A stretch of DNA of 64,000 nucleotides from Legionella taurinensis (GTDB taxonomy: Bacteria > Pseudomonadota > Gammaproteobacteria > Legionellales > Legionellaceae), in NCBI RefSeq assembly GCF_900452865.1, contig NZ_UGOZ01000001.1:1674001-1738000 (forward strand), in the 5' to 3' direction. Below the pieces are notes generated by a model. It worked only from the letters and a program-made list of their open reading frames with translations. It was not told where the DNA came from and did not search any database. This document shows, one piece after another, positions 44,723 through 60,151 of this stretch. The position numbers and the translations under genes are program-made. Position 1 is the stretch's first letter; every line of letters begins with the position of its first letter.

Positions 44723-46028
44723 AGCGCAAGTCATCGCCAAGGATTTAAACCACATCTGGCATCCCTGCATGCAGATGAAAGAATTTGAAACTTACCCGCC
44801 GCTGGTGATTCATGAAGCCAAGGGCAGCTACCTCTACACGGATCAGGGACCCCTTATTGACGGCATCTCCAGCTGGTGGTGTAAGTCCTTAGGCCACGGC
44901 CATCCTGCCATTGTTGATGCCATCCGGCAACAGTTACAGTATTTTGAGCAGGTGATTGCCGCCAATACCACGCATCCCCTCCTTGCTGAATTCGGAGAAA
45001 AAATCGCTGAAATTACCAACAAACAGCATGTGTTTTTTGCCAGCGACGGTTCTTCGGCAGTTGAGATTGCCATGAAACTGGCGCTGCATGCCATGCAAAT
45101 CCGGGGCGAGCATGCGCGTAACCAGTTTATTGCCTTACGGCATGCCTATCATGGAGAAACCTTGGCTACCATCAGTGTCAGCGACTTAGGCCTCTATAAA
45201 AAACCGTATGAAGGCTATGGCGTAGAATGCCATTTCATTCAGGAGGTACCCTATGTTCAAAGCCGCTTCGACCCCTTATGGGATGACAGCGAAGCGGCAT
45301 GGCAGGCGATGTTGCCGCAACTCGAAAAAGTAAAGCACCAGACCTGTGCTGTTCTTGTCGAACCGCTTGTTCAGGGCGCAGGGGGTATGCTCTGCTACAG
45401 CGCCGACTTCCTTAAAAAACTGGCTCAGTGGGCAAACGACAACGGCATTTATTTCATTGCCGACGAAATCATGACCGGCATGGGCCGAACCGGGCAATGG
45501 CTGGCCTGTGAATGGGCAGGCGTTGAACCGGATTTAGTGTGTCTGTCCAAAGGACTGACCGCTGGCGCCCTGCCCTTGAGTTGCGTACTGATTGACCACG
45601 AGGTGTATACGCTCTTCTATGATGATTATGCGTCAGGCAACTCATTCCTGCATTCGCATACGCACAGCGGCAATGCCTTAGCGGTCAGCGCCGCCCTAGC
45701 GGCCATCAAGGTCATGGAATCAGAGGGGATTCCTGAGCAGGCCCGTGCATTGGGTGAGTTGATGCACGCCCTGATGCTTGACATTGCCGAAACCACCGGG
45801 AAACTCAGCCAGGTGCGAAGCCTGGGAGCGATTGTCGCTGCCGACATGGAGGCGTTGCCAGGGCAGCGAATCAGTCAGCGATTTTATCAAGAAGCCTGCC
45901 GGCATGGCGCCTTATTACGTCCGATGGGCAATACTCTTTACTGGCTGCCACCTTTGAATTCGGATGAGAAAACGATTAGGCAATTGGCGGAAATCACTCT
46001 AAACTCTCTGTATGGGGTGTATAAATAA
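44712..46028 (+). CDS. bioA: Adenosylmethionine-8-amino-7-oxononanoate aminotransferase
   Basis: A 438-aa class III PLP aminotransferase converting 8-amino-7-oxononanoate to 7,8-diaminopelargonate with SAM as amino donor. LNHIWHPCMQM near the N-terminus, SSWWCKSLGHGHP, the PLP Asp in FIADEIMTGMGRTG, and the PLP Lys in LVCLSKGLTAG are all as expected. ATG 44712 places HIWHP at the family position (residue 14); an in-frame ATG at 44670 would fall in the promoter region. No ribosome site precedes it, and the BirA operator runs across the start codon. The EAL gene follows after 8 bases. Confidence 0.95.
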   Translation: MVNIAQVIAKDLNHIWHPCMQMKEFETYPPLVIHEAKGSYLYTDQGPLIDGISSWWCKSLGHGHPAIVDAIRQQLQYFEQVIAANTTHPLLAEFGEKIAEITNKQHVFFASDGSSAVEIAMKLALHAMQIRGEHARNQFIALRHAYHGETLATISVSDLGLYKKPYEGYGVECHFIQEVPYVQSRFDPLWDDSEAAWQAMLPQLEKVKHQTCAVLVEPLVQGAGGMLCYSADFLKKLAQWANDNGIYFIADEIMTGMGRTGQWLACEWAGVEPDLVCLSKGLTAGALPLSCVLIDHEVYTLFYDDYASGNSFLHSHTHSGNALAVSAALAAIKVMESEGIPEQARALGELMHALMLDIAETTGKLSQVRSLGAIVAADMEALPGQRISQRFYQEACRHGALLRPMGNTLYWLPPLNSDEKTIRQLAEITLNSLYGVYK

Positions 46029-46036
46029 CTAAAACA

Positions 46037-47623
46037 ATGATAAACGACATCCACAGCAGGCAGTTAAGTGCACAACAGACATTAACCATCAGCTGGTTCC
46101 TGCTATCGCTTATCGTGTTGTTTCTGGCTCTTTTCTATGAGTGGCGGCATTACCGTGAAGCCCGCGAGAATCAGATGGAATTGATCGCCAAGGAACGGGC
46201 GTTCCAGTTTGATGAGTTCATGGAAAATCTGATTCAAGGGACCTTTGCCTTAAATTTTACCCGTGATGAATTCAATGCCTGCCAAACTCAATTACTGCCA
46301 GTACTCACCGATTGGTTATTTAACAACCCCAATGTGTCTGCCATTGCCATAACCGATCCGGACGGAAAGACAACCTGTTCCACCTTAAACCTCACGCCGC
46401 CTGTTTTTTTCCCTGCCTCGGCGGCGCCTCATCTGCACGGGCCTTTTGATTCCGGCCATCACAAGCAACCGACTTACCTGTTGCAGCAGAAACTTGGGCA
46501 GTACCATTTTACGCTTTACATCTTAAGAAGCATTTTTGAAAACCTGCTAAGGCCTCTTGAAGCCACCAGCTTCAAAGCCATTGCCCTCTACGACACCCAA
46601 CATAAAAAGCAGGTTTTTCAACTCACCCAGCGGCAGCCGGATTCTTCCCCGGAAAAAAGCATGATGCTGCGTATCCCATCGCAGACACTGGATGATTACC
46701 AACTGCTGTTTACGGCAAAAGGCCTGGTTTATGAAAAGCACTTTATTTATACTGAATTAATCATTGCCGCGGTGGTCATTCTCCTCTCGCTCTTTCTTTA
46801 CTACCTTTTGCGAAAAGCCTTAAACCGTCGGTTTTCGCTGGATTACGCCCTGCAGAATGGACTGAGGCAGGGGCATTTTGAACCGATGTATCAGCCGGTC
46901 GTCGATGTAGCGAATAACCGGTTTTGCGGCGCTGAAGTTCTCATCCGCTGGCAGATGGATGCCAAACAGACCATCATGCCAGACTTGTTTATTGAAGAGG
47001 CCGAGGCCTCGGGGCTTATCGTACCCATGACCCTGCAACTGGTTGAAAAATCATTTCAGCAATGCGCTGAACTGCTTAGCAGCAATAACGATTTTCATCT
47101 GGCGTTCAATGTCTCCGTCAATCATTTTCTCGACAGACGCTTTTTTCCGCAATTTTATCAGCTCTGCGAACAATACGGCGTCAACAATCAGCAGATTATT
47201 CTTGAACTGACCGAGCGGCAGCTTTTTAATAAGGAAGACAAGGACAGCATGCGCATCATGCAGGACCTCCGTGAGCGCGGCTATTCACTGGCCATTGATG
47301 ACTTTGGTACAGGACATGCCAGTATTCATTACCTGCAGCACCTGCCCTTTAATTATCTTAAAATTGATAAATTGTTTATCCAGGCCATTGGTACCGGTGC
47401 AATCACCGAAACCCTGAATCAGGCCATCATTAACATGGCGAACTCGCTTGACCTGGCGATCATCGCCGAAGGCGTGGAAACCATGGAACAATATGATTAT
47501 TTGCGGCGTCATCGTGTAGACTATATACAGGGATGGTACTTTGCCAGGGCCATGACGATTGAGCAGCTCATCACGTTCATTGAGGAGAAAGCAAATGAAG
47601 CGATGCTTACAGCAGGCAGCTAG
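46037..47623 (+). CDS. CSS-motif EAL-domain c-di-GMP phosphodiesterase
   Basis: A 528-aa inner-membrane protein. Two TM segments (LSLIVLFLALFY near 25 and ELIIAAVVILLSLFLYYLL near 240) bracket a periplasmic sensor with the CSS-type sequence DGKTTCSTLNL near 110 and an earlier Cys in NACQTQLL. CSS sensors are thought to report periplasmic redox state through these cysteines. The C-terminal EAL domain keeps the catalytic residues: EVLIRW (EVL in place of EAL), FNVSVNHFL, ELTERQ, AIDDFGTG, LKIDKLFI and AEGVETM. It should hydrolyse cyclic di-GMP to pGpG. It lies 8 bases after bioA, and the next gene starts within its 3' end. Confidence 0.92.
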   Translation: MINDIHSRQLSAQQTLTISWFLLSLIVLFLALFYEWRHYREARENQMELIAKERAFQFDEFMENLIQGTFALNFTRDEFNACQTQLLPVLTDWLFNNPNVSAIAITDPDGKTTCSTLNLTPPVFFPASAAPHLHGPFDSGHHKQPTYLLQQKLGQYHFTLYILRSIFENLLRPLEATSFKAIALYDTQHKKQVFQLTQRQPDSSPEKSMMLRIPSQTLDDYQLLFTAKGLVYEKHFIYTELIIAAVVILLSLFLYYLLRKALNRRFSLDYALQNGLRQGHFEPMYQPVVDVANNRFCGAEVLIRWQMDAKQTIMPDLFIEEAEASGLIVPMTLQLVEKSFQQCAELLSSNNDFHLAFNVSVNHFLDRRFFPQFYQLCEQYGVNNQQIILELTERQLFNKEDKDSMRIMQDLRERGYSLAIDDFGTGHASIHYLQHLPFNYLKIDKLFIQAIGTGAITETLNQAIINMANSLDLAIIAEGVETMEQYDYLRRHRVDYIQGWYFARAMTIEQLITFIEEKANEAMLTAGS

Positions 47624-48038
47624 CCTGGCTTTATTCTGCGTTTCAGCCGCATCCATTGCACAAACACCAACAGGAGATAATTTCTGGCTGTGCAAAGCCC
47701 ATGATCAGGCGAACCGCGAATGGCTGGCGCAGAGTGTGTATTCCATCACGGCGATTAACAAAGCCTATGACGCCTGTAAAAAACAAAGCGAATACCCGGA
47801 AACCTGCAAAACGTCCAGGGCAGATTGTGATGCCTTCGTTGACGGACGCTCCACCCGCCCGATGTGGCAATGCACGGCGCTGGATTTTTCAGGAACACCC
47901 TGGTTAAGCGACATCTACACGCTCCGCGATGATGCCGCCCTGGGCGCCAAGGCATATTGCATGGACAACAGCGGTATTCCTGAGACATGTTACATTAACA
48001 TGATAACCTGTCGAAACATCAATGCGGCGAAACCCTGA
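47595..48038 (+). CDS. Secreted protein with duplicated four-Cys motif (147 aa)
   Basis: A 147-aa protein with a signal peptide (MKRCLQQAASLALFCVSAAS, cut after SIAQ). The mature part consists of two copies of a unit of about 55 residues with the order W-x-C, A-x-D, W-L, a second C, PETC and a final x-C: FWLCKAHDQANREWL...PETCKTSRADC and MWQCTALDFSGTPWL...PETCYINMITC. Each copy thus has four cysteines, probably two disulfides. The ATG 47595 with GAGGAGA lies inside the end of the EAL gene (29-base overlap), and coaE begins on its last base, so the three are translated as one group. No known family is recognised; an extracytoplasmic role alongside a Cys-sensing EAL protein is tempting but unproven. 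Confidence 0.75.
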   Translation: MKRCLQQAASLALFCVSAASIAQTPTGDNFWLCKAHDQANREWLAQSVYSITAINKAYDACKKQSEYPETCKTSRADCDAFVDGRSTRPMWQCTALDFSGTPWLSDIYTLRDDAALGAKAYCMDNSGIPETCYINMITCRNINAAKP

Positions 48039-48649
48039 TGTATTGCGTCGGTTTAACGGGAAACATTGCCAGCGGCAAATCCAGCGCTATCCGTTGTTTT
48101 AAAAGCTTAGGCATTCCGGTGGTCATTGCCGATGACATCGCCCGCGAGGTCACAGCCCCAGGACAACCGGCACTTCGGGCGATTCAGCAGCACTTTGGCG
48201 ATGCGATGCTTCACCAGGGCCACTTGAACCGTTCAAAATTACGTCAATTAATTTTTAAACAGCCTGAAGAGAGGCAGTGGCTTGAAAGCCTTCTTCATCC
48301 CCTTATCCGTCGTCAGATAGAAATGCGGGTTACGTCCTTTAAAGCCCCCTATTGCGTGATTGAAATACCTTTATTACTCGATCGCAGCCATTACCCGTAT
48401 TTAAACCGAATCCTGGTCATTTTAAGTGAGTCCGAGCGTTTAATTGAGCGGGTGATGGCACGCGACCAGCATACCCGGGAAGAAGCGCTTGCTATTTTAG
48501 CAGCCCAACCTGACGAAGCCGCCAGACGGGCAATTGCTGACGATCTGGTCATAAATGAAGGTTCTCTTGCGGATTTTGAACAGAAAATTTATGATTTGCA
48601 CGAAAAGTATTTATTTCTCGCAAACCTACCGTTGAATTCCAGCCAATAA
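48038..48649 (+). CDS. coaE: Dephospho-CoA kinase
   Basis: A 203-aa P-loop kinase that performs the last step of CoA synthesis, phosphorylating the 3'-OH of dephospho-CoA. Walker A GNIASGKS near residues 8-15 directly at the N-terminus, the substrate-binding IADDIAREV, LLHPLIRRQIE near 87, and the lid VMARDQHTREEA near 140. Length is typical. It starts on the last base of the previous stop codon (TGATG). The zapD gene follows, as in many gammaproteobacteria; a pilD-type gene normally upstream is missing here. Confidence 0.95.
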   Translation: MYCVGLTGNIASGKSSAIRCFKSLGIPVVIADDIAREVTAPGQPALRAIQQHFGDAMLHQGHLNRSKLRQLIFKQPEERQWLESLLHPLIRRQIEMRVTSFKAPYCVIEIPLLLDRSHYPYLNRILVILSESERLIERVMARDQHTREEALAILAAQPDEAARRAIADDLVINEGSLADFEQKIYDLHEKYLFLANLPLNSSQ

Positions 48650-48752
48650 GTATTGATTATTTTTAAAAACTCTTGTAAAGACCGGTTTGTATACTTTAAT
48701 ATTTCAAGTACAAAAAAACTGTTTAAACGTTGGCTAAGGATAGCAATTTTTT

Positions 48753-49499
48753 ATGCCTCAAGATACGATCACCTTTCAACTGGCAACCCACTTTTTGCCA
48801 AAAATTGCCTTGCGCCTTGAATGCCTTTATCAAACCATTGATCAAGCCTGTCAGGAAACTCATCCGGTCATCCATCATTACGCGTTAAAAAACATCATTG
48901 AAATCATTAAACTGATCGAAAAACCGGAATTAAAAAGCCGTTTCCTTAAAGAGTTAATGCGCATAGAGCATTCGATTAACAAATCCAATACCATCATTGC
49001 GAGCGAGCTTTACGATAATCTTTATACTCAAATTCAATCCTTAACTCACACGGCCGGCCTGTTTGGCGAAGGCATTCATCAGAATCCGTTTTTACAATCG
49101 ATTCGCCTGACACAGCCAACCCAAAGCAATGATTGCGAAATGTATTCTCCGCAATTGCTTCTCTGGCTGGAATCCAATCCCGGCGAGAGACAACGCGATT
49201 TAGCCATCTGGTTAAACCACCTGCGCACCCTGCAGGCGACGGTCACCATTTACCTGCGCTTACTGCGCGACACCGCCCAATTCGATGAAATCGACTTATT
49301 CAGCGGCTTTTACCAACGTGCTTTACCGCCGAAAACCTCCTGTCATCTTATTCTTTTGCGCATCGACAAAACCTTTGGCATTGTCCCGCGCATGCAGCTG
49401 GGTCATCATGGGTTAAGTCTTCGCCTGTGTGAAGCGTCCACCATGAGGGAAATTCGTGAAACCCATGCCCGATTGGACTTAGGCATTTGCCAGATATAA
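48753..49499 (+). CDS. zapD: Cell division protein ZapD
   Basis: A 248-aa cytoplasmic ZapD (formerly YacF), which cross-links FtsZ filaments in the Z ring. The N-terminal ITFQLATHFLPKIALRLECL, the helical first domain and the later LLWLESNPGERQRDLAIWL plus CHLILLRIDKTFGIVPRMQL are characteristic. Ribosome site TAAGGA. The coaE-zapD order is a conserved gammaproteobacterial feature. The yacG gene that often follows is not present; an EamA permease occupies its place. Confidence 0.93.
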   Translation: MPQDTITFQLATHFLPKIALRLECLYQTIDQACQETHPVIHHYALKNIIEIIKLIEKPELKSRFLKELMRIEHSINKSNTIIASELYDNLYTQIQSLTHTAGLFGEGIHQNPFLQSIRLTQPTQSNDCEMYSPQLLLWLESNPGERQRDLAIWLNHLRTLQATVTIYLRLLRDTAQFDEIDLFSGFYQRALPPKTSCHLILLRIDKTFGIVPRMQLGHHGLSLRLCEASTMREIRETHARLDLGICQI

Positions 49500-49584
49500 T
49501 CCTTGCGACGGTGGGGATATTTGCGCTGACAATCTAAGCCATATATGATTTGGGCAATGATATGATTTGCCCAGGGGTTTTTAT

Positions 49585-50451
49585 TTGTTTTCACGATCGA
49601 AAGGCGTTCTTTATTGCCTGTTATCCGGATTATTTTTTGGCTTAATCGGTTATTTTGGCATTACTGTGATTCATGAGCATATTTCCGTTTATACCATGTT
49701 ATTCTGGCGATTCATGGTGGCTGGGTTATTCATTGCCTTGATCATGCTTTGGCAAAGGGATGGGTTAAAATTAACGCGCAGGGATTTTTTAACGATTCTA
49801 AGTCATGGGATTTTTTTCTATGGCGCCTGCTCCATCCTGTATTTTATCGCGGCAAACTACATCGGTTCCGGGTTAGCTATGGTCGTGTTTTTTACTTACC
49901 CCGCCTTAGTCATGTTAATCAACAAGCTCGTCTACCAGCTCCCCTTCAACCTCATTTATTGCATATCCTTGCTGATTATTTTCAGCGGCATGGTGTTTTT
50001 GGTGCAGGGCGGACAGTTTCATTTCAATCCAATTGGCCTTATTTTAAGCATTCTGTCTGCCCTGCTTTATGCGTTTTATATTTTGGCCAGTAAGAAAAGC
50101 CGTGTATCACCGCTGCCCTCGACCCTGGTGTTATGCCTGGGATGCATGGTCATTTCATTGATTACAGCCCTGCTTGATCGATCCTTCACCTGGCCTGCAA
50201 GTTGGTCGGTTTGGGCTAATATTTTGGGCATCGGCATCCTGTGCACGGCCCTGCCCATTCTTCTGCTGCTAAATGGTTTAAAACTGATTAGTTCCACCCA
50301 GGCCTCCATTTTGTCAGTTCTTGAGCCTGTGTTTGTGGTGATCTTCGGCATCCTGCTCTTGGGTGAACAGGTTAGCCTCATGCAAATGATGGGTGTCAGT
50401 ATTATACTGTTAGGCTCTCTTCTGTCGTTGCTCAATGAACGGCACTCATGA
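49585..50451 (+). CDS. EamA-family (DMT) permease
   Basis: A 288-aa inner-membrane protein of the drug/metabolite transporter superfamily with ten hydrophobic helices and the two EamA repeats (first half LYCLLSGLFFGLIGYFG onwards, second half LILSILSALLYAFYILASKK onwards, ending SILSVLEPVFVVIFGILLLGE). The start is probably the TTG at 49585 with AGGGG seven bases before it; the frame is also open to TTG 49567. No ATG occurs early enough to keep TM1. Transport substrate unknown; relatives export metabolites or amino acids. It is the last gene of a rightward stretch and faces a convergent gene. Confidence 0.88.
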   Translation: MFSRSKGVLYCLLSGLFFGLIGYFGITVIHEHISVYTMLFWRFMVAGLFIALIMLWQRDGLKLTRRDFLTILSHGIFFYGACSILYFIAANYIGSGLAMVVFFTYPALVMLINKLVYQLPFNLIYCISLLIIFSGMVFLVQGGQFHFNPIGLILSILSALLYAFYILASKKSRVSPLPSTLVLCLGCMVISLITALLDRSFTWPASWSVWANILGIGILCTALPILLLLNGLKLISSTQASILSVLEPVFVVIFGILLLGEQVSLMQMMGVSIILLGSLLSLLNERHS

Positions 50452-50507
50452 TTGAATTTGGCTATTCATTGAGCCATGCACCCAGGCCAGCGTTTAAACG
50501 GGGTCTG

Positions 50508-51002
50508 TTAACGTCCCTGACGAACAACCTGTTCAAGATCAATGGTTCTTTCAGAAGAGACTGAGGGCGTCATGCAACCCACGATGCCGCGGGCAAACGG
50601 GTAAATGCAAAACACTCCCGTGGCCATTCCAACCAGTGTGGAGACTGGCGTTAAAGCCAACCACAGCATGCGGATGTCCGCATCGACCTCCGCCGCACCC
50701 AGAATATAATAGGTTGCCACATGAACGCCAGTGGAGAGCGTCATGCTGGTACAGGCCGACACTTTATGGAAAAAGCGGCTGCTTGTCACCTGCGACGTCG
50801 TGTCTTTCACTGCGTCTTTCCTGGCCTCTACCTCACGTTCATAGTGTGATTTTTCTTTCCTGATTAACGCATCAATCTGAGGAGTAATGTAGGTTTGCTC
50901 AATGCCGGGATCAATTGCTTTGTCATACAGAGCCAATAATTTTTCAGGGTGGTTGTTTCTCAGTGATTGCGCAGCAAGTATTTTTAACGATAAAACGGTC
51001 AT
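50508..51002 (-). CDS. Hypothetical membrane protein (164 aa)
   Basis: A 164-aa protein with a helical cytoplasmic N-terminus (RNNHPEKLLALYDKAIDPG, then a charged coil KEKSHYEREVEARKDAV) and two TM segments near residues 83-105 (SACTSMTLSTGVHVATYYIL) and 110-140 (LWLALTPVSTLVGMATGVFC). No family is recognised. It lies 43 bases after the membrane-fusion gene of the polysaccharide operon in the same direction, so it might be its last gene, though it shows no relation to known export proteins. Effector-like two-TM proteins of this size are also common in Legionella. Confidence 0.55.
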   Translation of the reverse strand: MTVLSLKILAAQSLRNNHPEKLLALYDKAIDPGIEQTYITPQIDALIRKEKSHYEREVEARKDAVKDTTSQVTSSRFFHKVSACTSMTLSTGVHVATYYILGAAEVDADIRMLWLALTPVSTLVGMATGVFCIYPFARGIVGCMTPSVSSERTIDLEQVVRQGR

Positions 51003-51045
51003 AATCCACTCAATGATTGTTTACAAATTAACAAAGTTGATTATT

Positions 51046-52077
51046 TTATTCTAATTCGATGGTAACGGGTATACCAAAGACCTGATATATTTGGGGGATC
51101 GCCTCATCGGGACGAATAATGGCAATCAATTTATTCTCGCGGGTAGCTAACGGATTAATCTGCGACAGAGGCACTTTCTCCGCGTAACTGGGTGTGTTAA
51201 TGATGCGCCCTTCGATTTTCTCATTGCCAGGGAAAGTGATGGTGACCTGTTTGTTCTGATACACTTCTTCGGCGTATTTTGGATCAATGAAAGCAATGAT
51301 GCGCATATTCCGTTCAGTAACAATGGTCATTAAATTTTGCCCGGCAGACACGTACTCATCCTGATGGGTTGAAATGCTCATGATGGTGCCCGGTTGAGGG
51401 GCCAGGATAGAAAAATGAGCTATTTTATCTTTCACTTCCGCAATATTGCTTTCAATTTCTAAAATCTTGCGTTTGTAATTGACCTCAAGGAGCGTTTTGG
51501 ACTGCAGCTTCGCTTCCTGAATCTGCTGTTCAAGCGCGGCATAATTTCTCTGCGCGTTTACCCAGTTTTTCCGGGCTTCTTCCAATTGCAGCTCTGCCAT
51601 ATCCCCCTTATTGACGTATTTTACAAAGCGCTCGTAGACCGCTTTACTGGAATCGATGTCTTTTTTAGCGACGTCCAGTAAATTTTCCAAATTGTCTGGC
51701 GTTTGATCGCCCAAGGAGTTCATCAGGTCGGTGATGCGTTCTTTTTCCTTCTCCAGGTACTGCAGTTTGGTCAGGGTTTCCGGTGAAATGAATTTTAAAA
51801 TCATCTCGCCTTTCCTGACCTTTTGTCCCGGTTGCACATTCAGATTTTCAATGTAACCTTCATCAGGCGCACGGATAATGATGGTGTCGTAAGCTATCAA
51901 TCCTGAAAAACGGATAAAAACGTATTCATTAATTAATTGATACAACAAAATAGCCAAAGGAATACTTAAAATAAGTACCAGAAGAATCCAGCGCATCTTG
52001 GGAGGCGTACGGATCCCCTCGCCATACTGGACTGGCAATTGTTCTGACGGCGCTTTTTTACGAAAGTGAATTCCCAT
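51046..52077 (-). CDS. Membrane-fusion-type protein of the polysaccharide operon (Alg44/HlyD-like)
   Basis: A 343-aa protein: short cytoplasmic N-terminus, one TM (WILLVLILSIPLAILLYQLI, residues 30-50), lipoyl half TIIIRAPDEGYIENLNVQPG, a coiled coil at about 105-215, the second lipoyl half FSILAPQPGTIMSISTHQDE and a beta-barrel with ITFPGNEKIEGRI. This is the HlyD-like periplasmic part found in Alg44 of alginate synthases, but without the cytoplasmic PilZ domain that Alg44 carries. It lies 12 bases after the glycosyltransferase gene. Inference: it carries nascent polysaccharide across the periplasm. It could alternatively serve an unrelated exporter, but no ABC gene is near. Confidence 0.8.
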   Translation of the reverse strand: MGIHFRKKAPSEQLPVQYGEGIRTPPKMRWILLVLILSIPLAILLYQLINEYVFIRFSGLIAYDTIIIRAPDEGYIENLNVQPGQKVRKGEMILKFISPETLTKLQYLEKEKERITDLMNSLGDQTPDNLENLLDVAKKDIDSSKAVYERFVKYVNKGDMAELQLEEARKNWVNAQRNYAALEQQIQEAKLQSKTLLEVNYKRKILEIESNIAEVKDKIAHFSILAPQPGTIMSISTHQDEYVSAGQNLMTIVTERNMRIIAFIDPKYAEEVYQNKQVTITFPGNEKIEGRIINTPSYAEKVPLSQINPLATRENKLIAIIRPDEAIPQIYQVFGIPVTIELE

Positions 52078-52089
52078 ATCACCCGACTT

Positions 52090-53418
52090 TTATTTGGTTC
52101 TCTTTATAACCCACCAGGGGGCCATTGAAGAATCCTTATGTCCTTTAAAAATGATTTCATTTAAAATAAAAATGGTCGCCATGTAACGCATGAACTGCTG
52201 ATAAATGGGCATTAATAGCACCCAGCCTATCATTTTGGCATCCTGCCGCGGCCTTTCCGAGACCAACAGTAAAAATAACACATACATCACTATTCCGGTC
52301 AGCAAATAATAACAGTAAACCAGGATGTTAACAGCGACAACCACCGTCAGGCTATATTGCAGAAATAATAGAATGCTGTAAAGCAGAACGATAAACGGCA
52401 GCACCAATTGGTAATACAGGCCATACCAGCTAAAGAAGAACATTTTCATGCGATTCATCAGTGCCGGGCTGAATTTACGCCAATGCCGCCTCACGTAAAT
52501 ATAATACAAATCCCCATCCCAGCGTAAGCGTTGCTTCAGCAGGGTTTTTAATTTGACAGGCGCCGCCGTCCAGGCAATGGCGAAAGGTTCATGGACTATT
52601 TTTAAATGGGAATACCGGCTGACGTAAACGTGCAGGCGCAAGGTTAAATCCAGATCTTCCGCGGTGCCATTTAACCAGCCGCCAATCTGCTTTAAAAACC
52701 CAGTGCGGAAAACACCAAAAGCACCGGAAATATTATTGGTTACATTTAATTCGGTTAAGCCGAAACGGCCAAGCTGAATACCGATCATGTACTCAATGGC
52801 CTGAAGCCTTGTCAGGATGGAGTCTTTGTAATTTCTCACCCGGACTGCCCCGGAAACCGCAATGACGTTCGGATCAATAAAATGAGCCGCAGCCTTGGCT
52901 ACCGTCTGATTATCAATGGACGTATCTGCATCCAGCATAATCAATACTTCACCCTTGGCCAGTTTAAGACCTAAATTCATGGAGCTGGCGTGGCCGCCAC
53001 GAGTCTGGCGTTCAATGACTGTGAAAAAACGATTAGGCAACTTCCCATACTGCAAGGCCAATTGTTTGGCATATTGCGCTGTTTTTATATTCTTGACGGC
53101 ATTATCGACAATGATCATTGTTTCGATTTTACCCGGATAGATTTGCTCGCCTACCGCACGCATCGTGGTCAGGATTTCTTCATAGGTTTCGTTGTAAGCT
53201 GTAATGACAATGGTGACAATGGGATAATAGCCCCTGGCGAACTCGCCCTTAAAATGCAGGTTAATCCAGCCCCGAATACTGTAAAGTATCGTCAACACAT
53301 AAAATGGCAACTCAAGTAAAAATACAAATGGGAAAAAAATAAACAGGAAGCTTTTGATGTTTCCCATGGAAAACAGGCTGGTAAAGTAGTAGGCCAGTCC
53401 ATAGAGAAAATCATTCAT
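52090..53418 (-). CDS. Membrane family-2 glycosyltransferase (polysaccharide synthase)
   Basis: A 442-aa processive-type GT2 with TM helices at the N-terminus (about 1-45) and four at the C-terminus (from about 310). Between them the full synthase signature can be read: VTIVITAYNET, MLDADTSID (DxD), GTAEDLDLTLR (the TED-like catalytic Asp) and KQRLRWDGDLYY (QxxRW). This set is shared by cellulose, hyaluronan, PNAG (PgaC) and alginate (Alg8) synthases. ATG 53418 was taken; it overlaps the end of the upstream gene by 8 bases, so translation is coupled. It should polymerise and perhaps extrude a glycan whose precursor the operon's epimerase supplies. Confidence 0.88.
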   Translation of the reverse strand: MNDFLYGLAYYFTSLFSMGNIKSFLFIFFPFVFLLELPFYVLTILYSIRGWINLHFKGEFARGYYPIVTIVITAYNETYEEILTTMRAVGEQIYPGKIETMIIVDNAVKNIKTAQYAKQLALQYGKLPNRFFTVIERQTRGGHASSMNLGLKLAKGEVLIMLDADTSIDNQTVAKAAAHFIDPNVIAVSGAVRVRNYKDSILTRLQAIEYMIGIQLGRFGLTELNVTNNISGAFGVFRTGFLKQIGGWLNGTAEDLDLTLRLHVYVSRYSHLKIVHEPFAIAWTAAPVKLKTLLKQRLRWDGDLYYIYVRRHWRKFSPALMNRMKMFFFSWYGLYYQLVLPFIVLLYSILLFLQYSLTVVVAVNILVYCYYLLTGIVMYVLFLLLVSERPRQDAKMIGWVLLMPIYQQFMRYMATIFILNEIIFKGHKDSSMAPWWVIKRTK

Positions 53419-54793
53419 TGCTGTTGATCCGGTTATACAATTCCGCCAGCAGCAAATCCGACCCGATGTCATTTTTTATCACATCCCAGGACGACATCAT
53501 GCCCACACTGATATTAATTTTATTTTCAGACTGAATTTCAGCAAACGCCCTGATGCGCTCATGGATAATGTCGCAACCCTGCTGTGGGGTCATGGGTAAA
53601 AAGAAAATGACGGTTTTATTGTCACGCGTCACCAAATCACTGTCCCTTAATAAAGTCCTCACCCGCTCGAAAAACTCCATCAACAGTTTTTCTGTTTTAA
53701 ACATCCCAAGCGTGTTGACTAACTCCTCTTCGTTGGTTACTTTTAGGGCAAAGAGGCTATAAATTAATTGATCATATCGTCGGGCAAGAATGGTTTGCCA
53801 TTTGACAACCATCATAAAAATACTTAAATCAATGAGCTTCAAAAACTGGCCCAGTTCAACAATCAAATGCTGATCAAGCCCCTTGGCAAGAGACTCCCCG
53901 CGTCGCGCGAGCCGGTATTCATACAGGCGTTTCGCCTGCAAATCACCAGGATCAGAGAGTTTCTCACAAACCATGCAAACGGCATTGACCGCGGCCTCAA
54001 AGAAAGCATGTTGACAATCCTGGCAAATCTTATCCTCCATCGGCTTGTCATAATCGATGCCGATGTGCCGGAGTTTCACATGGCAGCGGCTGCAGACCAA
54101 TTCTTCGTGGTGAAGAAATTCAGACAACGGACCGACATTTCCACAGGAAAAACAATGAATGAATGATTGCACAGCAATATGGACAGACTGGCAATTGGGA
54201 CAGCAATTTTTAAAGTTTAGCAAACCGGATCGGCAATGCGGGCAGGTCTGGATTTCATCAATTAAAGTCTCATGCTTTAGGAGTTTTCGTGACTCCATCC
54301 CCTGCAGCATGTACCAATAGTGCTGAGCATCTTCATGAAATCCAAGAATATCCAGCAAGGGGTATTGGAAGCCGGAAGGTGAGCGATAATCCAGAAAACC
54401 TCTCAGAATGTACTCTTCTCTCACGAACAGGTAACTGCATATTAATTGCTCGAAATCGCTGATTTTTTCTTTATGGACGGCTTTAACTAACTGGATTTTA
54501 TCCTGAATGGCTTTGGCCCGAGAAAACAGATCGTCGGTAAAAGCCCCATCCAGAAGCTGCTCGGCATGCTCAGGCGGCGTACCGGTATAAAAAACAGGGG
54601 ACAGCTGGTAATTTTCCTTCTGTCTGATGTCGTGGATCACACTCAGAGTATAGCCGTCATTGAAATCAATAAGGACAAAAAGACAGCCCTGAGGTGGCAG
54701 CTGATTGATGCTTTCAATGGGAATAATCCCGTCGGGCAGTGTTTTCGCTGTCAATTGGCGGGTAATCAGATACCCGTTATTATCCTGCGCCAT
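53411..54793 (-). CDS. Zinc-ribbon (TackOD1-like) protein with degenerate GGDEF domain
   Basis: A 460-aa cytoplasmic protein with three parts. Residues 1-120 look like a receiver-type or similar alpha/beta domain without the phosphoacceptor set. Residues 180-280 are Cys-rich, with CxxC pairs at 184/187, 198/201, 214/217, 234/237, 257/260 and 273/276, in the style of the TackOD1 metal-binding output domain. Residues 320-460 follow a GGDEF domain: ERVRTLLRDSDLVTR then DNKTVIFFLP where GGDEF should stand, so diguanylate cyclase activity must be lost. The I-site RxxD is kept as R383-D384-S385-D386. That combination is the one used by PelD, a c-di-GMP receptor. It lies between epimerase and glycosyltransferase genes, overlapping the latter. 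It is the candidate regulator of the operon. Confidence 0.75.
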   Translation of the reverse strand: MAQDNNGYLITRQLTAKTLPDGIIPIESINQLPPQGCLFVLIDFNDGYTLSVIHDIRQKENYQLSPVFYTGTPPEHAEQLLDGAFTDDLFSRAKAIQDKIQLVKAVHKEKISDFEQLICSYLFVREEYILRGFLDYRSPSGFQYPLLDILGFHEDAQHYWYMLQGMESRKLLKHETLIDEIQTCPHCRSGLLNFKNCCPNCQSVHIAVQSFIHCFSCGNVGPLSEFLHHEELVCSRCHVKLRHIGIDYDKPMEDKICQDCQHAFFEAAVNAVCMVCEKLSDPGDLQAKRLYEYRLARRGESLAKGLDQHLIVELGQFLKLIDLSIFMMVVKWQTILARRYDQLIYSLFALKVTNEEELVNTLGMFKTEKLLMEFFERVRTLLRDSDLVTRDNKTVIFFLPMTPQQGCDIIHERIRAFAEIQSENKINISVGMMSSWDVIKNDIGSDLLLAELYNRINSNE

Positions 54794-54808
54794 GTTGTTA
54801 TCCTTTTT

Positions 54809-55729
54809 TTAGCAGGAATCGTTTAAAAATCGCTTTAAACCATCCTCAATGGGCGTTTTTGCCTTAAACCCCAGTTGCATTTGCGCCAGTTCCGTTTTAC
54901 CCAGGGAGTGTATTAAATCGCCGCCGCGGGCAGGCAAGTAGTCAATTTCAGCCTGTGAATGAGTTAATTTAAGCATTAGCCAGGCTAAGGATTCAATAGT
55001 TATTGCCTCTCCGCTGCAGATATTAAATACGAAAGCCTCTGAACAATCGACACTGGCGGCTTTTATTAACGCATCCACCACGTCATCGATGTAAATAAAA
55101 TCGCGCGTTTGCTGGCCATCACCATAAATGGTCAGGTTTTGGTGTGTCAAAATCGCCTGTTTGAAGTGACTTATGACACCGCTGTAGGGATTGGTGGCGG
55201 ATTGACCAGGGCCGTACACATTGAAAAATCGCAGCCCAATGGAAGAAACGCCGGCCATTCGTGACATCATTCCTGCATACATTTCATTGCAAAGTTTGTC
55301 GCAGCCGTAATTGGAAACAGGATGAGGCGGCTCTTTTTCTTCCAGAGGCAGGGTCCTTGAGTCGCCATACACCGCCGCCGAGGAGGCATAGACCAGTTTG
55401 GGACGTTTATCTCGCAGCCTGATTTCATCGAGCAGATAATTAAACGCCAATGCATTCACGGCATGGCTGAAGAGCCAATCCCGCTCGCACAGGGCAATGG
55501 ACGCCAGGGCAGCCAGATGAAAACAGGCATCGACCTCGTTGAGCAGATCATGCAACAGCGCTTTTGACAACACATCGCCCTCGATAATCAACGCATCACG
55601 CACGTCATAATACCCTGGCTTGTCGATGTTTTTATCAAGAATGATGACCTCAACCCCTGCCTTAAGCAGCCGGCGAGCGAGATGATTGCCGATAAAGCCC
55701 ATTCCTCCCGTAACAAGTGCTTTTTTCAT
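54809..55729 (-). CDS. NAD-dependent sugar-nucleotide epimerase/dehydratase
   Basis: A 306-aa extended SDR of the GalE/WbpP type. TGGMGFIGNHLARRL at residues 7-21 binds NAD; SSAAVYGD near 118 gives the catalytic Ser/Thr and NYGCDKLCNEMY the Tyr-Lys pair; LRFFNVYGPGQ, FIYIDDVVDAL and the sugar-binding TKTP-type end follow. Such enzymes interconvert UDP-glucose/galactose or UDP-GlcNAc/GalNAc or form related UDP sugars. It is the first gene of the leftward polysaccharide operon, with 15 bases to the next gene, and probably supplies the polymerase donor, as PelX does in some pel loci. Confidence 0.9.
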   Translation of the reverse strand: MKKALVTGGMGFIGNHLARRLLKAGVEVIILDKNIDKPGYYDVRDALIIEGDVLSKALLHDLLNEVDACFHLAALASIALCERDWLFSHAVNALAFNYLLDEIRLRDKRPKLVYASSAAVYGDSRTLPLEEKEPPHPVSNYGCDKLCNEMYAGMMSRMAGVSSIGLRFFNVYGPGQSATNPYSGVISHFKQAILTHQNLTIYGDGQQTRDFIYIDDVVDALIKAASVDCSEAFVFNICSGEAITIESLAWLMLKLTHSQAEIDYLPARGGDLIHSLGKTELAQMQLGFKAKTPIEDGLKRFLNDSC

Positions 55730-55863
55730 GATAATGAAATCCCTCCACTACCGTTTAAGGCTGTCCGATGAAGAATCAAAGCATGAATTGGGCCAGATTG
55801 TTAGGAGTAACAAGCGGAAACCGCGCCACCACAAAGAGTCTGAAGTAGCGCGGAAAAAGATGA

Positions 55864-56913
55864 TTAATGAATGATAACCACTTTGTGGTCGTTGTGCCGC
55901 TTACAAAATTCCTTAACGAACTGCAAGTCGTCGCCAATTCTGTCTTTTAATCGGCCTTGTTGCAACGCGGCGAGTTCATTGTCATTAAGAACATTTTTGG
56001 CGTCATCACAACCCTGCAAAATTTTTATTGCTTTTTTTGCGGCACTAATTTTGACGGTTGCAGCGCGAGAATCCCACGCGAACAATCGAGCCCAGGAGCC
56101 ATTGTATTCGCTGTGGGACAATCGACGTTCCCCTTCACGAAGCACCACGTAGTTGCATAATTTCGCTAAAGAAGTCTCTTGCAGTTCGCTCTTTATTTGT
56201 TCATTGACGCTCTTTGTATTAGGGTAATCGACTTGCCATTGATTCAGAGTGCCAATATACGCTTCTTGTACGACCATGCATTGGGGAGGATTCTTATTAT
56301 CTTTGGTTTCTTGGGCCACCTCGTAAAGATTATGCAGGCTGTCGTCAAAATAGGTAATTTCCAAATCATCCGTTTCCAGCATCCCAAAGAGTTCCCGTCT
56401 TAAATGATCAAATTGCGCTACTTTGCCTTGCGGATAAAAGGAGGCAGGGTCTTCTTTTTTCATAGAATCGGTTTTTTCAACACCATCCCAAACCAAGGTG
56501 ATTTCTTCGTTATATTGTTCCACTAAAGGAGCCGGTAACTTGAACTCTTCTCCCTGTTTTACTGAGCCGGCTGCCTTTTTTAATTCGTCTTCAAAGCCTT
56601 TCAGCACATCATCAAAGTATTGCATCGGCTTGCCATTTTTATAGTATGGGTCAATGGAGGTCGATACTCGGATGCGTTTTCCCAGCACCTTCCCAAGCTC
56701 ATCAACCACATCGGGCGTATTAACAAGATCACCTTCTTCCACGCCAGATAATTGGTATTTACGTGGGATTTGTGCCATTTGAAGATAGACGCTTCGTTGC
56801 GTAAATAGAATGACTTCATCATACTCACGAAGTTGTTCAACCAGGGCTTGATTTAACCTGTTCCCATGAAGAATACAGCCATCAATATCCACAAATGCTA
56901 CTTTTTTAGTCAT
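55864..56913 (-). CDS. HAD-like protein, effector-like (349 aa)
   Basis: A 349-aa soluble protein whose N-terminus is a haloacid-dehalogenase motif I, VAFVDIDGCIL (D9, D11), followed by motif II VILFTQRS (T38) and a late acidic pair ITYFDDSLHN (D190, D191) as motif IV. These are the Asp nucleophile, Thr/Ser and Mg-binding Asp pair of HAD phosphatases. About 150 residues between motifs II and IV form an insertion (cap) of unusual length, and the C-terminal 130 residues are unassigned. No signal peptide. Its nearest neighbours are the epimerase (divergent spacing of 134 bases) and mutT. A Dot/Icm substrate is plausible but the sequence does not prove it. Confidence 0.65.
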   Translation of the reverse strand: MTKKVAFVDIDGCILHGNRLNQALVEQLREYDEVILFTQRSVYLQMAQIPRKYQLSGVEEGDLVNTPDVVDELGKVLGKRIRVSTSIDPYYKNGKPMQYFDDVLKGFEDELKKAAGSVKQGEEFKLPAPLVEQYNEEITLVWDGVEKTDSMKKEDPASFYPQGKVAQFDHLRRELFGMLETDDLEITYFDDSLHNLYEVAQETKDNKNPPQCMVVQEAYIGTLNQWQVDYPNTKSVNEQIKSELQETSLAKLCNYVVLREGERRLSHSEYNGSWARLFAWDSRAATVKISAAKKAIKILQGCDDAKNVLNDNELAALQQGRLKDRIGDDLQFVKEFCKRHNDHKVVIIH

Positions 56914-57013
56914 AATTCACTCATCTGGTCATTTCCTGCCAGTATACCGGCCTTGAATTAAGGGATTATTAACACCATTGAAAACAGGAATTGAACAACT
57001 TATGAATTTTGGG

Positions 57014-57031
57014 CGCGCGGAATTTCGCGCG
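57014..57031 (-). terminator. Short GC-rich hairpin after mutT
   Basis: CGCGCG pairs with CGCGCG around a GAATTT loop (57014-57031), 11 bases beyond the end of mutT on the leftward strand. The T tract is poor. Confidence 0.35.
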
Positions 57032-57041
57032 TGAATCTAAT

Positions 57042-57452
57042 TTATAGCGAGTGTTCAGCGGAAAAAGAGGCATGCGCCTTTAGCAATTGCACAATTTTAT
57101 AATTGGCTTCAGGAAATGAATAATCGGAGAGCTGCTCAAAGGGTACCCAACACAAGCCCATTTGGTTTTCGCGGCAGGTCGCGCGACCGGTGAATTCGTC
57201 CACCAAAAAAACAACCAGCGTCACTGTTCTATGGGGATATTGGTGATTGATTTCGCCGAGGAATGTGGACTTGTTGATTTGAATGCCCACTTCTTCATCA
57301 ATTTCACGAGTCAAGGCTTGATCGGCCGCCTCGCCTTCTTCAAGCTTACCACCGGGGAATTCCCACATCCCCCCATGGCTGGCATGGGCGGGACGGCGGG
57401 TAATCAGAATACGCTGGTTTTTGTCTACTATAACGGCAACAGCGACTTTCAC
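57042..57452 (-). CDS. mutT: Nudix hydrolase MutT (8-oxo-dGTP diphosphatase)
   Basis: A 136-aa Nudix protein. The Nudix box [20 protein letters not shown] fits GX5EX7REUXEEXGU exactly, starting near residue 38. The N-terminus [19 protein letters not shown] and the tail with [19 protein letters not shown] are MutT-type. It clears oxidised dGTP from the nucleotide pool. The ATG overlaps the secA stop by four bases, so mutT is translationally coupled with secA, an order seen in gammaproteobacteria. Confidence 0.93.
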
Positions 57453-60151
57453 ACCAGACTTCCGTGGCAGCTCTTGTATTTCTTACCAGAACCGCAGGGG
57501 CAAGGATCATTGCGTCCTATTTTTTGTCCTTCACGGCGATAAGGCGTATGGTCTTCCATGCCTTCCGCCGTCTCCTCGCCGTCCTCTTCGCTCTGACGCA
57601 GTAACTGCACGTTCTGGACCTGCTCGGAACGACGCTGATCTTCAATGGCCTGGACGTCCTCTTCCGTTTGGACCTGCACCGAGGTCAACAAGCGGATGAT
57701 TTCGTATTTGAGGGTATCAAGCATCATGGTAAACAGAGCAAAGGCTTCGCGTTTATACTCCTGTTTAGGATCTTTCTGCGCGTAGCCGCGTAAATGAATG
57801 CCCTGACGCAAATGATCCATGGACGCTAAATGCTCACGCCAATGATTATCCATGGTCTGGAGAATAACCGACTTCTCAAACTGCGCCAGCACTTCACGGC
57901 CAGCCTGTTTCTCCTTCTCCTGGTAGCGTTCATAGCATAAGTTAAAGACACGTTCTTTAATCTGCTCCGGTTGCAGGGTATGATCGTTGTCCACCCAGTC
58001 CGCCACATCGGCTCTGACCTGAAAATCTTCATACAGGGTTTTGGACAACCCATCCAGATTCCATTGATCTTCGAGACTTTGCGGGGGAATAAAATTATCC
58101 ACCAGGGTAAAAATGACTTCTTCGCGCATGGCATCAACCACTTCCTTCGGATCGGTCATGGCCATGATGGCCGCGCGTTGAGTGTAAATCACCCGCCGTT
58201 GGTTGTTGGCAACGTTGTCATAATCCAACAGCTGTTTACGGACATCAAAATGATGGCCTTCGAGTTTACGCTGCGCGTTTTCAATCGCTTTGGTGACCAA
58301 GTTATGCTCAATCGGCTCTCCCGGTTTCATGCCTAAACGACGCATCATGTTAATGACCCGTTCGGAAGCGAAAATACGCATTAAATTGTCATCGAGCGAT
58401 AAATAGAATCGGCTGCTGCCGGGGTCGCCCTGACGGCCGGCACGGCCTCGTAACTGGTTATCGATACGACGGGATTCATGGCGTTCAGAACCGATAATGC
58501 GCAGCCCCCCTGCCTTAATCACGTCATCATGACGTGTTTGCCAATCGTCTTTAATGGCCTGACGCTCAGCTTCAGAAGCCCCTTCAGGCAACATGGCCAG
58601 CTCCGCTGCAAGGCTGCCGCCCAGAACGATGTCGGTTCCTCGTCCTGCCATGTTGGTGGCAATGGTGACTGCACCGGGGCGCCCTGCCTCTGCAATAATC
58701 TGTGCTTCCTTTTCATGGAATTTGGCATTCAACACCTGATGTTTAATGCCCGCTTTCTTCATTAACTGGCTTAATAATTCGGATGCTTCAATGGAAGCCG
58801 TTCCCACAAGAACAGGCTGTTTGCGCGCCATGCAGTCTTTCACGTCGTCGATGATGGCCTGGTATTTGTCTTCAAGGCCCAGGTAGATGAGATCGGCCTG
58901 ATCCTGACGGCGCATGGGCTTGTTAGTCGGAATAACCACCACTTCAAGATTGTAAATCTGCTGGAATTCATAGGCTTCGGTATCCGCCGTTCCGGTCATC
59001 CCCGCCAGCTTGTCGTACAGTCGGAAATAGTTCTGGAACGTAATGGATGCCAGCGTCTGGTTTTCATGCTGAATGGGCACCAGCTCTTTAGCTTCAATGG
59101 CCTGATGCAGGCCTTCTGACCAGCGTCGACCCGACATGGTACGGCCAGTGTGTTCGTCAACAATCACCACCTGGCCATCTTTGACAATGTAGTCCACATC
59201 GCGATGGAACATGGCATGCGCTTTCAACGCCGCATTGACATGGTGCATGAGGATGATATTGCTGGCGTGGTATAAACTTTCGCCTTCATCCAGCAGGCCT
59301 TCTTTCATCAACAGTTCTTCGATATGCTGATGCCCGGCTTCGGTGAGGTGCGCCTGCTTCTGCTTTTCGTCCACCGTGTAATCGCCGCCATCCCCTTCTT
59401 CTTCCTGCTTTCTCAATTGAGGAATCAGTTTGTTGACTTTCATGTACAGCTCAGAGCTTCCTTCCGCCGCACCGGAAATGATGAGCGGTGTTCTCGCCTC
59501 ATCAATCAGAATGGAATCCACCTCATCGACGATGGCAAAATTCAATTCGCGCTGCACCTTGTCGCTTAAGCTGAAAGCCATGTTGTCGCGCAGGTAATCA
59601 AAACCAAATTCGTTATTGGTACCAAAGACTATGTCAGCACGGTAAGCCTGCTGTTTTGCAGCATGCGTCATGTCCGGTGCAATGACGCCCACGGTTAAGC
59701 CCAAAAATTCGTAAATGGGTCCCATCCACTGGCTGTCGCGCTTGGCCAGATAATCATTCACAGTAACCACATGAACCCCGCGACCGCTGATGGCATTTAA
59801 ATAAGCCGGTAAAGTACCGACCAAGGTTTTACCTTCCCCGGTGCGCATTTCAGCGATATTCCCTTCATGCAGAACCATGCCGCCAATCAGCTGTACATCA
59901 AAATGACGAAGCCCCATGGTACGGACAGACACTTCACGCACCACAGCAAAGGCTTCCGGCAGCAACTGGTCAAGTGATTCACCCTGGGAAAAACGTTGTT
60001 TGAACTCCGCTGTTTTCAGAGCAAGCTGTTCATTGGACAAAGCCTTCATTGCAGGCTCAAGGGCATTGATGCTGAGGACGGTTTTTTCCATGCGCCGCAG
60101 AGTCCGCTCGTTACGACTCCCAAACATTTTCTTTATCAACGTATTCAGCAT
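57449..60151 (-). CDS. secA: Protein translocase subunit SecA
   Basis: A 900-aa SecA, the ATPase motor of the general secretion pathway. Walker [12 protein letters not shown] near residue 103, Walker [15 protein letters not shown] near 208, the preprotein-binding domain with [13 protein letters not shown] and [16 protein letters not shown]-binding motor 2 with [13 protein letters not shown], and the C-terminal zinc finger [14 protein letters not shown], which binds SecB and phospholipid. The start at ATG 60151 follows AAGG and matches the usual N-terminus ([17 protein letters not shown]). mutT follows with a four-base overlap. No SecM-like gene precedes it in the same direction. Confidence 0.97.

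What the first reader, a model, noticed from the sequence alone, without database searches (positions are those of the whole stretch)
51046..55729. Candidate exopolysaccharide synthase operon with a c-di-GMP-receptor-like GGDEF protein
Four leftward genes with gaps of 15 bases or overlaps: epimerase, zinc-ribbon plus degenerate GGDEF, processive GT2 with DxD, TED and QxxRW motifs, and an HlyD/Alg44-like adaptor without PilZ. Established knowledge: in Pel a degenerate GGDEF (PelD) and in alginate a PilZ (Alg44) make polymer synthesis depend on c-di-GMP. Here the receptor would be neither of these but a cytoplasmic zinc-ribbon GGDEF. No outer-membrane secretin, deacetylase or lyase gene is present, so the system would be minimal or rely on genes elsewhere. 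Inference: an undescribed or poorly described polysaccharide system.
Basis: partly seen in the sequence, partly recalled or inferred. Interest (0 to 1): 0.8.

Follow-up and report, generated by a model that had tools for sequence, protein, structure and literature searches.

The report
Legionella Mxd-type c-di-GMP-gated sugar-polymer synthase
A Legionella genome carries a compact gene set that very probably makes and exports a sticky sugar polymer under control of the signal molecule c-di-GMP; it is a relative of the Mxd biofilm system known from Shewanella, whose gene core turns out to be spread over many bacterial phyla.

Summary
In detail: four leftward, nearly gapless genes at 51046-55729. 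The 'zinc-ribbon GGDEF' protein is a receiver-like domain, a TackOD1 zinc domain (E 7e-63) and a GGDEF fold whose catalytic motif is gone (0 of 134 aligned relatives, 130 of them with that stretch), while the c-di-GMP I-site RxxD is the domain's only strongly conserved feature. The GT2 is modelled like hyaluronan and cellulose synthases. TackOD1-GGDEF, GT2 and HlyD match Shewanella oneidensis MxdA, MxdB and MxdC in the same order (31%, 43%, 22% identity), a locus I found by exact match of a published mxd primer. Papers report that MxdA binds c-di-GMP and that mxd is needed for 3D biofilm. The epimerase is an accessory of four close relatives. What looks new: the receptor/GT2 pair occurs in 12 named phyla; about half of the clustered loci add a large protein with outer-membrane-efflux and glycosidase-like parts; and Legionella keeps a solitary second receptor gene, even in species without the synthase. 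Verdict: new member of a known, poorly characterised kind.

The parts
54809..55729 (-). NAD-dependent sugar epimerase/dehydratase, first gene; accessory, at this place only in the closest relatives
   Evidence: Pfam Epimerase E 1.5e-50; clade-specific place; SSAAVYG and YGCDK read in the sequence fit an epimerase-type site (motif meaning recalled)
53411..54793 (-). MxdA-like protein: receiver-like domain, TackOD1, degenerate GGDEF
54479..54793 (-). receiver-like N-terminal domain (about residues 1-105); the residue at the likely phospho-acceptor place is D in 28 of 54 relatives, so probably a pseudo-receiver in many
   Evidence: rows spanning residues 1-5 to 460 of PleD, WspR and DgcR, at high rmsd because the domains are placed differently; column 43; the place of the acceptor is my own reading
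53909..54466 (-). TackOD1 zinc-binding domain (residues 110-295)
   Evidence: PF18551 E 6.7e-63; 11 of 12 aligned Cys columns kept in 133 or 134 of 134 rows, the twelfth (C214) is C in 70 and H in 64; H213 in 134 of 134
53414..53863 (-). GGDEF-fold domain without GG(D/E)EF motif (residues 311-460)
53636..53647 (-). I-site RxxD (R383-D386), predicted c-di-GMP binding
   Evidence: R in 107 and D in 129 of 134 rows, 130 of which have the stretch; the only columns of the domain conserved at 90% or more in 54 sequences; aligned with the RxxD of a canonical cyclase of the same genome
52090..53418 (-). MxdB-like membrane GT2 synthase (442 aa from the ATG at 53418; longest ORF starts at 53472)
   Evidence: 43% identity over 420 aa to S. 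oneidensis MxdB; model nearest to hyaluronan synthase; invariant D, DxD, D of TED/GxD, QxxRW in 47 of 47
51046..52077 (-). MxdC-like HlyD-family periplasmic adaptor, no PilZ
   Evidence: HlyD_3 E 3.1e-15; 22% identity over 334 aa, E 3e-24, to S. oneidensis MxdC

Best explanation
This is an Mxd-type exopolysaccharide system. The TackOD1-GGDEF protein (MxdA-like) is a cytoplasmic c-di-GMP receptor: c-di-GMP binds the RxxD site of its inactive GGDEF domain, and the bound protein switches on the adjacent membrane GT2 (MxdB-like), which polymerises a sugar nucleotide and threads the chain across the inner membrane. The HlyD-type adaptor (MxdC-like) guides it through the periplasm to a TolC-type channel encoded elsewhere. 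The leading epimerase supplies a 4-epimerised sugar nucleotide. Shown here: domains, degenerate active site with kept I-site, synthase-like model, homology and shared gene order with mxdABC. Reported for Shewanella in papers: MxdA binds c-di-GMP; mxd genes needed for 3D biofilm. Inferred: direct MxdA-MxdB contact, polymer identity, the TolC-type exit, the role of the epimerase.
For: Homology to the experimentally studied operon: MxdA 31%/326 aa E 4e-51, MxdB 43%/420 aa E 2e-119, MxdC 22%/334 aa E 3e-24, same order. The Shewanella locus was pinned by the published primer Pmxd-fw-150, found in 1 of 129 genomes of that genus. S. oneidensis MxdA also has TackOD1 (E 4.7e-71) and a sub-threshold GGDEF (22.5 bits). 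I-site kept, GGDEF motif lost. GT2 fold of hyaluronan/cellulose synthases and invariant catalytic motifs. A GT2 lies next to the TackOD1-GGDEF gene in 72 of 80 named loci; all 10 genomes of a 369-genome class sample with an MxdB-like GT2 (E 1e-80) also have TackOD1. Some relatives carry a gene of a UDP-glucose dehydrogenase cluster (9 loci, one member identified) or of an efflux/glycosidase-like protein beside the core. Papers (passages only): PMC7666153, PMC11395469, PMC3691769, PMC3409153.
Confidence: 0.8

Rival explanations
1. The GT2 transfers sugars to a lipid or surface glycan instead of making a long polymer, and HlyD exports a glycolipid; the MxdA-like protein gates this by c-di-GMP.
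Against: QxxRW, DxD and a final acidic D are invariant in 47 of 47; best NCBIfam match is the PNAG synthase PgaC (125 bits, below its cut-off); ArnC and YfdH are separated from the MxdB rows by a very long branch, though long branches make this weak; relatives carry efflux/glycosidase-like genes; mxdB loss in Shewanella blocks 3D biofilm (PMC3691769 passage).
Confidence: 0.12
2. The TackOD1-GGDEF protein is not a c-di-GMP receptor but a scaffold that regulates other diguanylate cyclases or links the synthase to CheY-like signalling.
For: MxdA was earlier reported to modulate c-di-GMP indirectly (Rakshe 2011, cited; the paper is not held) and to interact with CheY3 and the cyclase PdgA; the receiver-like N-terminus would suit such contacts; solitary copies sit beside a gene of one cyclase cluster in 5 of 14 loci (only the L003 member checked by Pfam).
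Against: Strong, selective conservation of the RxxD site alone in the domain; MxdA reported to bind c-di-GMP.
Confidence: 0.1
3. The protein is an active diguanylate cyclase, as some annotations call it.
For: Annotated 'diguanylate cyclase' in Aeromonas and Plesiomonas plasmid records; GGDEF fold.
Against: GG(D/E)EF in 0 of 134 rows, 130 of them with the stretch.
Confidence: 0.02

Closest known systems
Mxd system of Shewanella oneidensis MR-1 (mxdABCD; mxdA is SO4180)
   Same: TackOD1-degenerate GGDEF, GT2 and HlyD in the same order and with homologous sequences
   Different: The window has a leading epimerase and no mxdD homologue nearby; MxdC only 22% identical; the gene in front of S. oneidensis mxdA is not an epimerase (read from the ORFs)
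Pel (PelD)
   Same: Degenerate GGDEF with kept RxxD, in a polysaccharide operon (PelD facts from PMC8461298 passages)
   Different: PelD has TM helices and GAF; the window protein has no PelD or GAF match but TackOD1 and receiver-like domains; Pel uses a soluble GT4, here a membrane GT2
Alginate Alg8/Alg44
   Same: Membrane GT2 beside an HlyD-like adaptor (make-up of Alg8/Alg44 partly recalled)
   Different: No PilZ in the adaptor; the receptor is a separate protein
PNAG (PgaCD) and cellulose (BcsA)
   Same: Processive GT2 fold and motifs
   Different: Scores far below the equivalog cut-offs (PgaC 125 of 422 bits; CelA 34 of 699 bits); no PgaA/PgaB or BcsB/BcsC in the operon
TackOD1 response regulators of Archaea
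   Same: Same zinc domain, there fused to REC (PMC5847659 passages)
   Different: That paper's text has no 'mxd' or 'Shewanella' and its GGDEF passages concern other proteins

Membership tests
Mxd (Shewanella mxdABCD) | MxdA: TackOD1 plus degenerate GGDEF with RxxD | tested here: met
Mxd (Shewanella mxdABCD) | MxdB: membrane GT2 directly downstream | tested here: met
   43% over 420 aa; 8-base overlap
Mxd (Shewanella mxdABCD) | MxdC: HlyD-type protein third in order | tested here: met
   22% over 334 aa, E 3e-24
Mxd (Shewanella mxdABCD) | MxdD small protein fourth in order | tested here: not met
   tblastn of the 122-aa candidate against window 46000-60000: best E 3.3. I do not count mxdD as defining: its cluster (c211) is seen in no other of the loci laid out
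Mxd (Shewanella mxdABCD) | MxdA binds c-di-GMP | not testable with these tools
   reported for S. oneidensis; here only the I-site is seen
Pel | PelD-type GAF-GGDEF receptor | tested here: not met
   no GAF or PelD family among Pfam matches up to E 1
Alginate | PilZ domain on the adaptor (Alg44) | tested here: not met
   no PilZ up to E 1
PNAG (Pga) | PgaC equivalog score | tested here: not met
   125.2 against cut-off 422.3
Cellulose (Bcs) | CelA equivalog score, BcsB partner | tested here: not met
   34.3 against 699.1; no BcsB among the operon's proteins

The most novel reading that the evidence does not exclude
The TackOD1-GGDEF/GT2 pair defines a major, largely unrecognised class of c-di-GMP-gated synthase-dependent exopolysaccharide machines, found in at least 12 named phyla. 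The receptor is a receiver-TackOD1-inactive GGDEF protein, the synthase is hyaluronan-synthase-like, and the polymer leaves through an HlyD adaptor and a TolC-type channel, in some members apparently fused to a glycosidase-like domain. Legionella has also split off a solitary receptor copy for another target.
Probability: 0.5. Interest if true: 0.75.

Novelty: new member of a known kind. Interest (0 to 1): 0.5.

Why it matters
It places a Legionella operon in a known biofilm system, gives the poorly understood MxdA a clear domain make-up and a testable ligand site, and shows that the pair of receptor and synthase is a widespread module. A 2021 review of c-di-GMP-controlled exopolysaccharides has no occurrence of mxd or Shewanella in its main text (PMC8461298). 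An HlyD/TolC-type route for a polysaccharide would differ from the exits of cellulose, PNAG, Pel and alginate systems (exits recalled).

Tried and rejected
Tried: reading the protein as an active diguanylate cyclase (rejected). Filing it under Pel, alginate, PNAG or cellulose (rejected). A GT2 tree with six E. coli references: the references sit on long branches, so it does not settle synthase against lipid enzyme. Finding Shewanella through decaheme cytochromes: the genomes checked from the first class sample were not convincing, two genomes gave full-length MtrC matches. Primer search in loci L168-L197: no match with up to 3 mismatches. Promoter and terminator scan: counts close to shuffles (12 against mean 9.9; 7 against 5.8), no use made. 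Literature: the one held paper with TackOD1 has no 'mxd' in its text, so no held paper has both; no Legionella Mxd paper showed in the listings; further listings. Two papers searched for terms gave nothing useful.

Full report
What is there. The window lies in a genome of 3.15 Mb. The best named matches to its receptor-like protein are Legionella rubrilucens (96%) and L. erythra (93%), so it is a Legionella close to these. Four minus-strand genes run from 55729 to 51046: an epimerase, a 460-aa protein, a GT2 and an HlyD-family protein. Gaps are 15 and 12 bases; the GT2 start at 53418 overlaps the gene before it by 8 bases.

Link to Mxd. I suspected Shewanella mxdABCD and tested it. A primer from the mxd promoter paper (PMC3691769, Table 2) matches 1 of 129 genomes of the genus exactly, on a contig of 4,969,811 bases. 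The genes there are MxdA (TackOD1 E 4.7e-71, GGDEF 22.5 bits), MxdB and MxdC. Window against Shewanella: 31% over 326 aa, 43% over 420 aa, 22% over 334 aa. The 122-aa candidate for mxdD has no counterpart in window 46000-60000 (best E 3.3). Papers say that mxd is needed for 3D biofilm, that MxdB is GT-like, that MxdA has a degenerated GGDEF, and that MxdA binds c-di-GMP and interacts with CheY3 (passages of PMC3691769, PMC3409153, PMC7666153, PMC11395469). The binding study itself (Gambari 2019) was not read.

Conservation in Legionellales. TackOD1 is in 27 of 143 genomes of the order searched and 11 of 11 of the genus. I fetched 34 of the 35 full-length places, the window being the 35th (places counted). 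In 18 of 34 the order TackOD1-GGDEF, GT2, HlyD is kept (in L004 with a short HlyD ORF); one (L034) has an epimerase between the first two; one (L019) lacks a detected GT2; 14 are solitary. The epimerase leads the operon in 3 of these 34 and in the window. An MxdB-like GT2 (E 1e-60) is found in 20 of 140 genomes of the order.

Conservation beyond. Of 80 named loci kept from 272, 72 have the GT2 adjacent; of the other 8, four are solitary Legionella copies, three break off within about 1 kb of the gene at a contig end, and one (L054) shows none (read). The 80 are Bacteroidota 33, Pseudomonadota 28 and at least ten further named phyla, mostly metagenome-assembled genomes, so single records may be misplaced. 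In a 394-genome sample of the order of Aliiglaciecola I fetched 20 of the 25 full-length places: 18 of 20 have the A-B-C order; the other two (L204, L216) have a more distant GT2. Plesiomonas and Photobacterium plasmid loci also show it. In a Gammaproteobacteria sample, all 10 genomes of 369 with a strong MxdB-like GT2 are among the 27 with a TackOD1 match. Clustering neighbours in 113 loci with an adjacent GT2, 111 of them distinct, gives TackOD1-GGDEF 111, GT2 109, HlyD 100 and a fourth protein of about 700 aa in 58 loci, or 98 HlyD and 56 of the fourth in distinct loci. Of 33 of those 58 scanned, 12 match the outer membrane efflux family and 3 glycosyl hydrolase family 18 (in the one member that I saw in detail, L087, the latter was below its cut-off). 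Their profile matches a putative GH97 entry over part of its C-terminal half (E 2.2e-9) and, weakly, phage portal proteins (E 0.0016) and efflux channels (CmeC E 0.0091, OprN E 0.012) over its N-terminal part, so its make-up is a lead, not settled. No member of that cluster lies beside the Legionella or Shewanella operons laid out. Two GT2 groups appear, one with TAEDLD (window, Shewanella) and one with GxDGD (Bacteroidota and others).

Mechanism. Most likely c-di-GMP binds the MxdA-like protein, which turns on the GT2; the chain crosses the inner membrane in the synthase and leaves by HlyD plus a TolC-type channel. Binding in Legionella, the contact, the exit and the sugar are inferred. Against it: weak MxdC similarity, no mxdD, the lost I-site Arg in part of the family, and a GT2 fold shared with one mannosyltransferase not known to me as a polymer synthase.

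Solitary copies. The same genome has a second TackOD1-GGDEF gene without GT2 (L003:7216-8637), with the I-site kept. It lies by a polyprenyl synthetase gene (Pfam; the cluster is in 12 of 14 solitary loci) and in 5 of 14 by a gene of one cyclase cluster (Pfam on the L003 member only). Five genus members (G001, G002, G006, G007, G010) have TackOD1 but no MxdB-like GT2, so the solitary copy probably acts on something else there.

Verdict. Ordinary in kind, since Mxd is known, but a poorly characterised kind with an unexpectedly wide and coherent gene core.

Noticed in passing
L003:7216-8637 (own genome, C1 about 2547 kb): Second, solitary TackOD1-GGDEF gene with kept I-site, next to a membrane diguanylate cyclase gene (L003:8751-9905); solitary copies also occur in five genus members without the synthase.
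   Followed up: partly
L055:8610-10775, L062:8597-10741, L087:8375-10489 and others: A protein of about 700 aa with an outer-membrane-efflux part and, by profile, a glycosidase-like tail accompanies the core in 58 of 113 loci (56 of 111 distinct); no Pfam match in some members, L055 among them.
   Followed up: partly
L063:72-1415 and eight other loci of the same cluster: UDP-glucose/GDP-mannose dehydrogenase gene near the core in some loci, hinting at a uronic acid in the polymer there; only the L063 member was scanned.
   Followed up: no
L017:6320-8596 and L036:5971-8247: TackOD1 protein of 758 aa with two TackOD1 stretches; no GGDEF match up to E 0.01 in L017.
   Followed up: no
L019, L004, L160: Operons that look decayed: no detected GT2 and a short receptor ORF (L019), a short HlyD ORF (L004), GT2 in two pieces (L160). 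Described only.
   Followed up: no
L145 (Aeromonas caviae plasmid pKAM345_3): A TackOD1-GGDEF gene without a GT2 in the stretch seen, annotated diguanylate cyclase, on a mobilizable 29-kb plasmid.
   Followed up: no
window 50508-51002 and 55864-56913: Flanking 164-aa and 349-aa proteins without a Pfam match over cut-off, found beside the operon only in the closest relatives.
   Followed up: no
L003:5920-7173: Calpain-family cysteine protease domain protein (E 1.7e-15) beside the solitary receptor gene.
   Followed up: no
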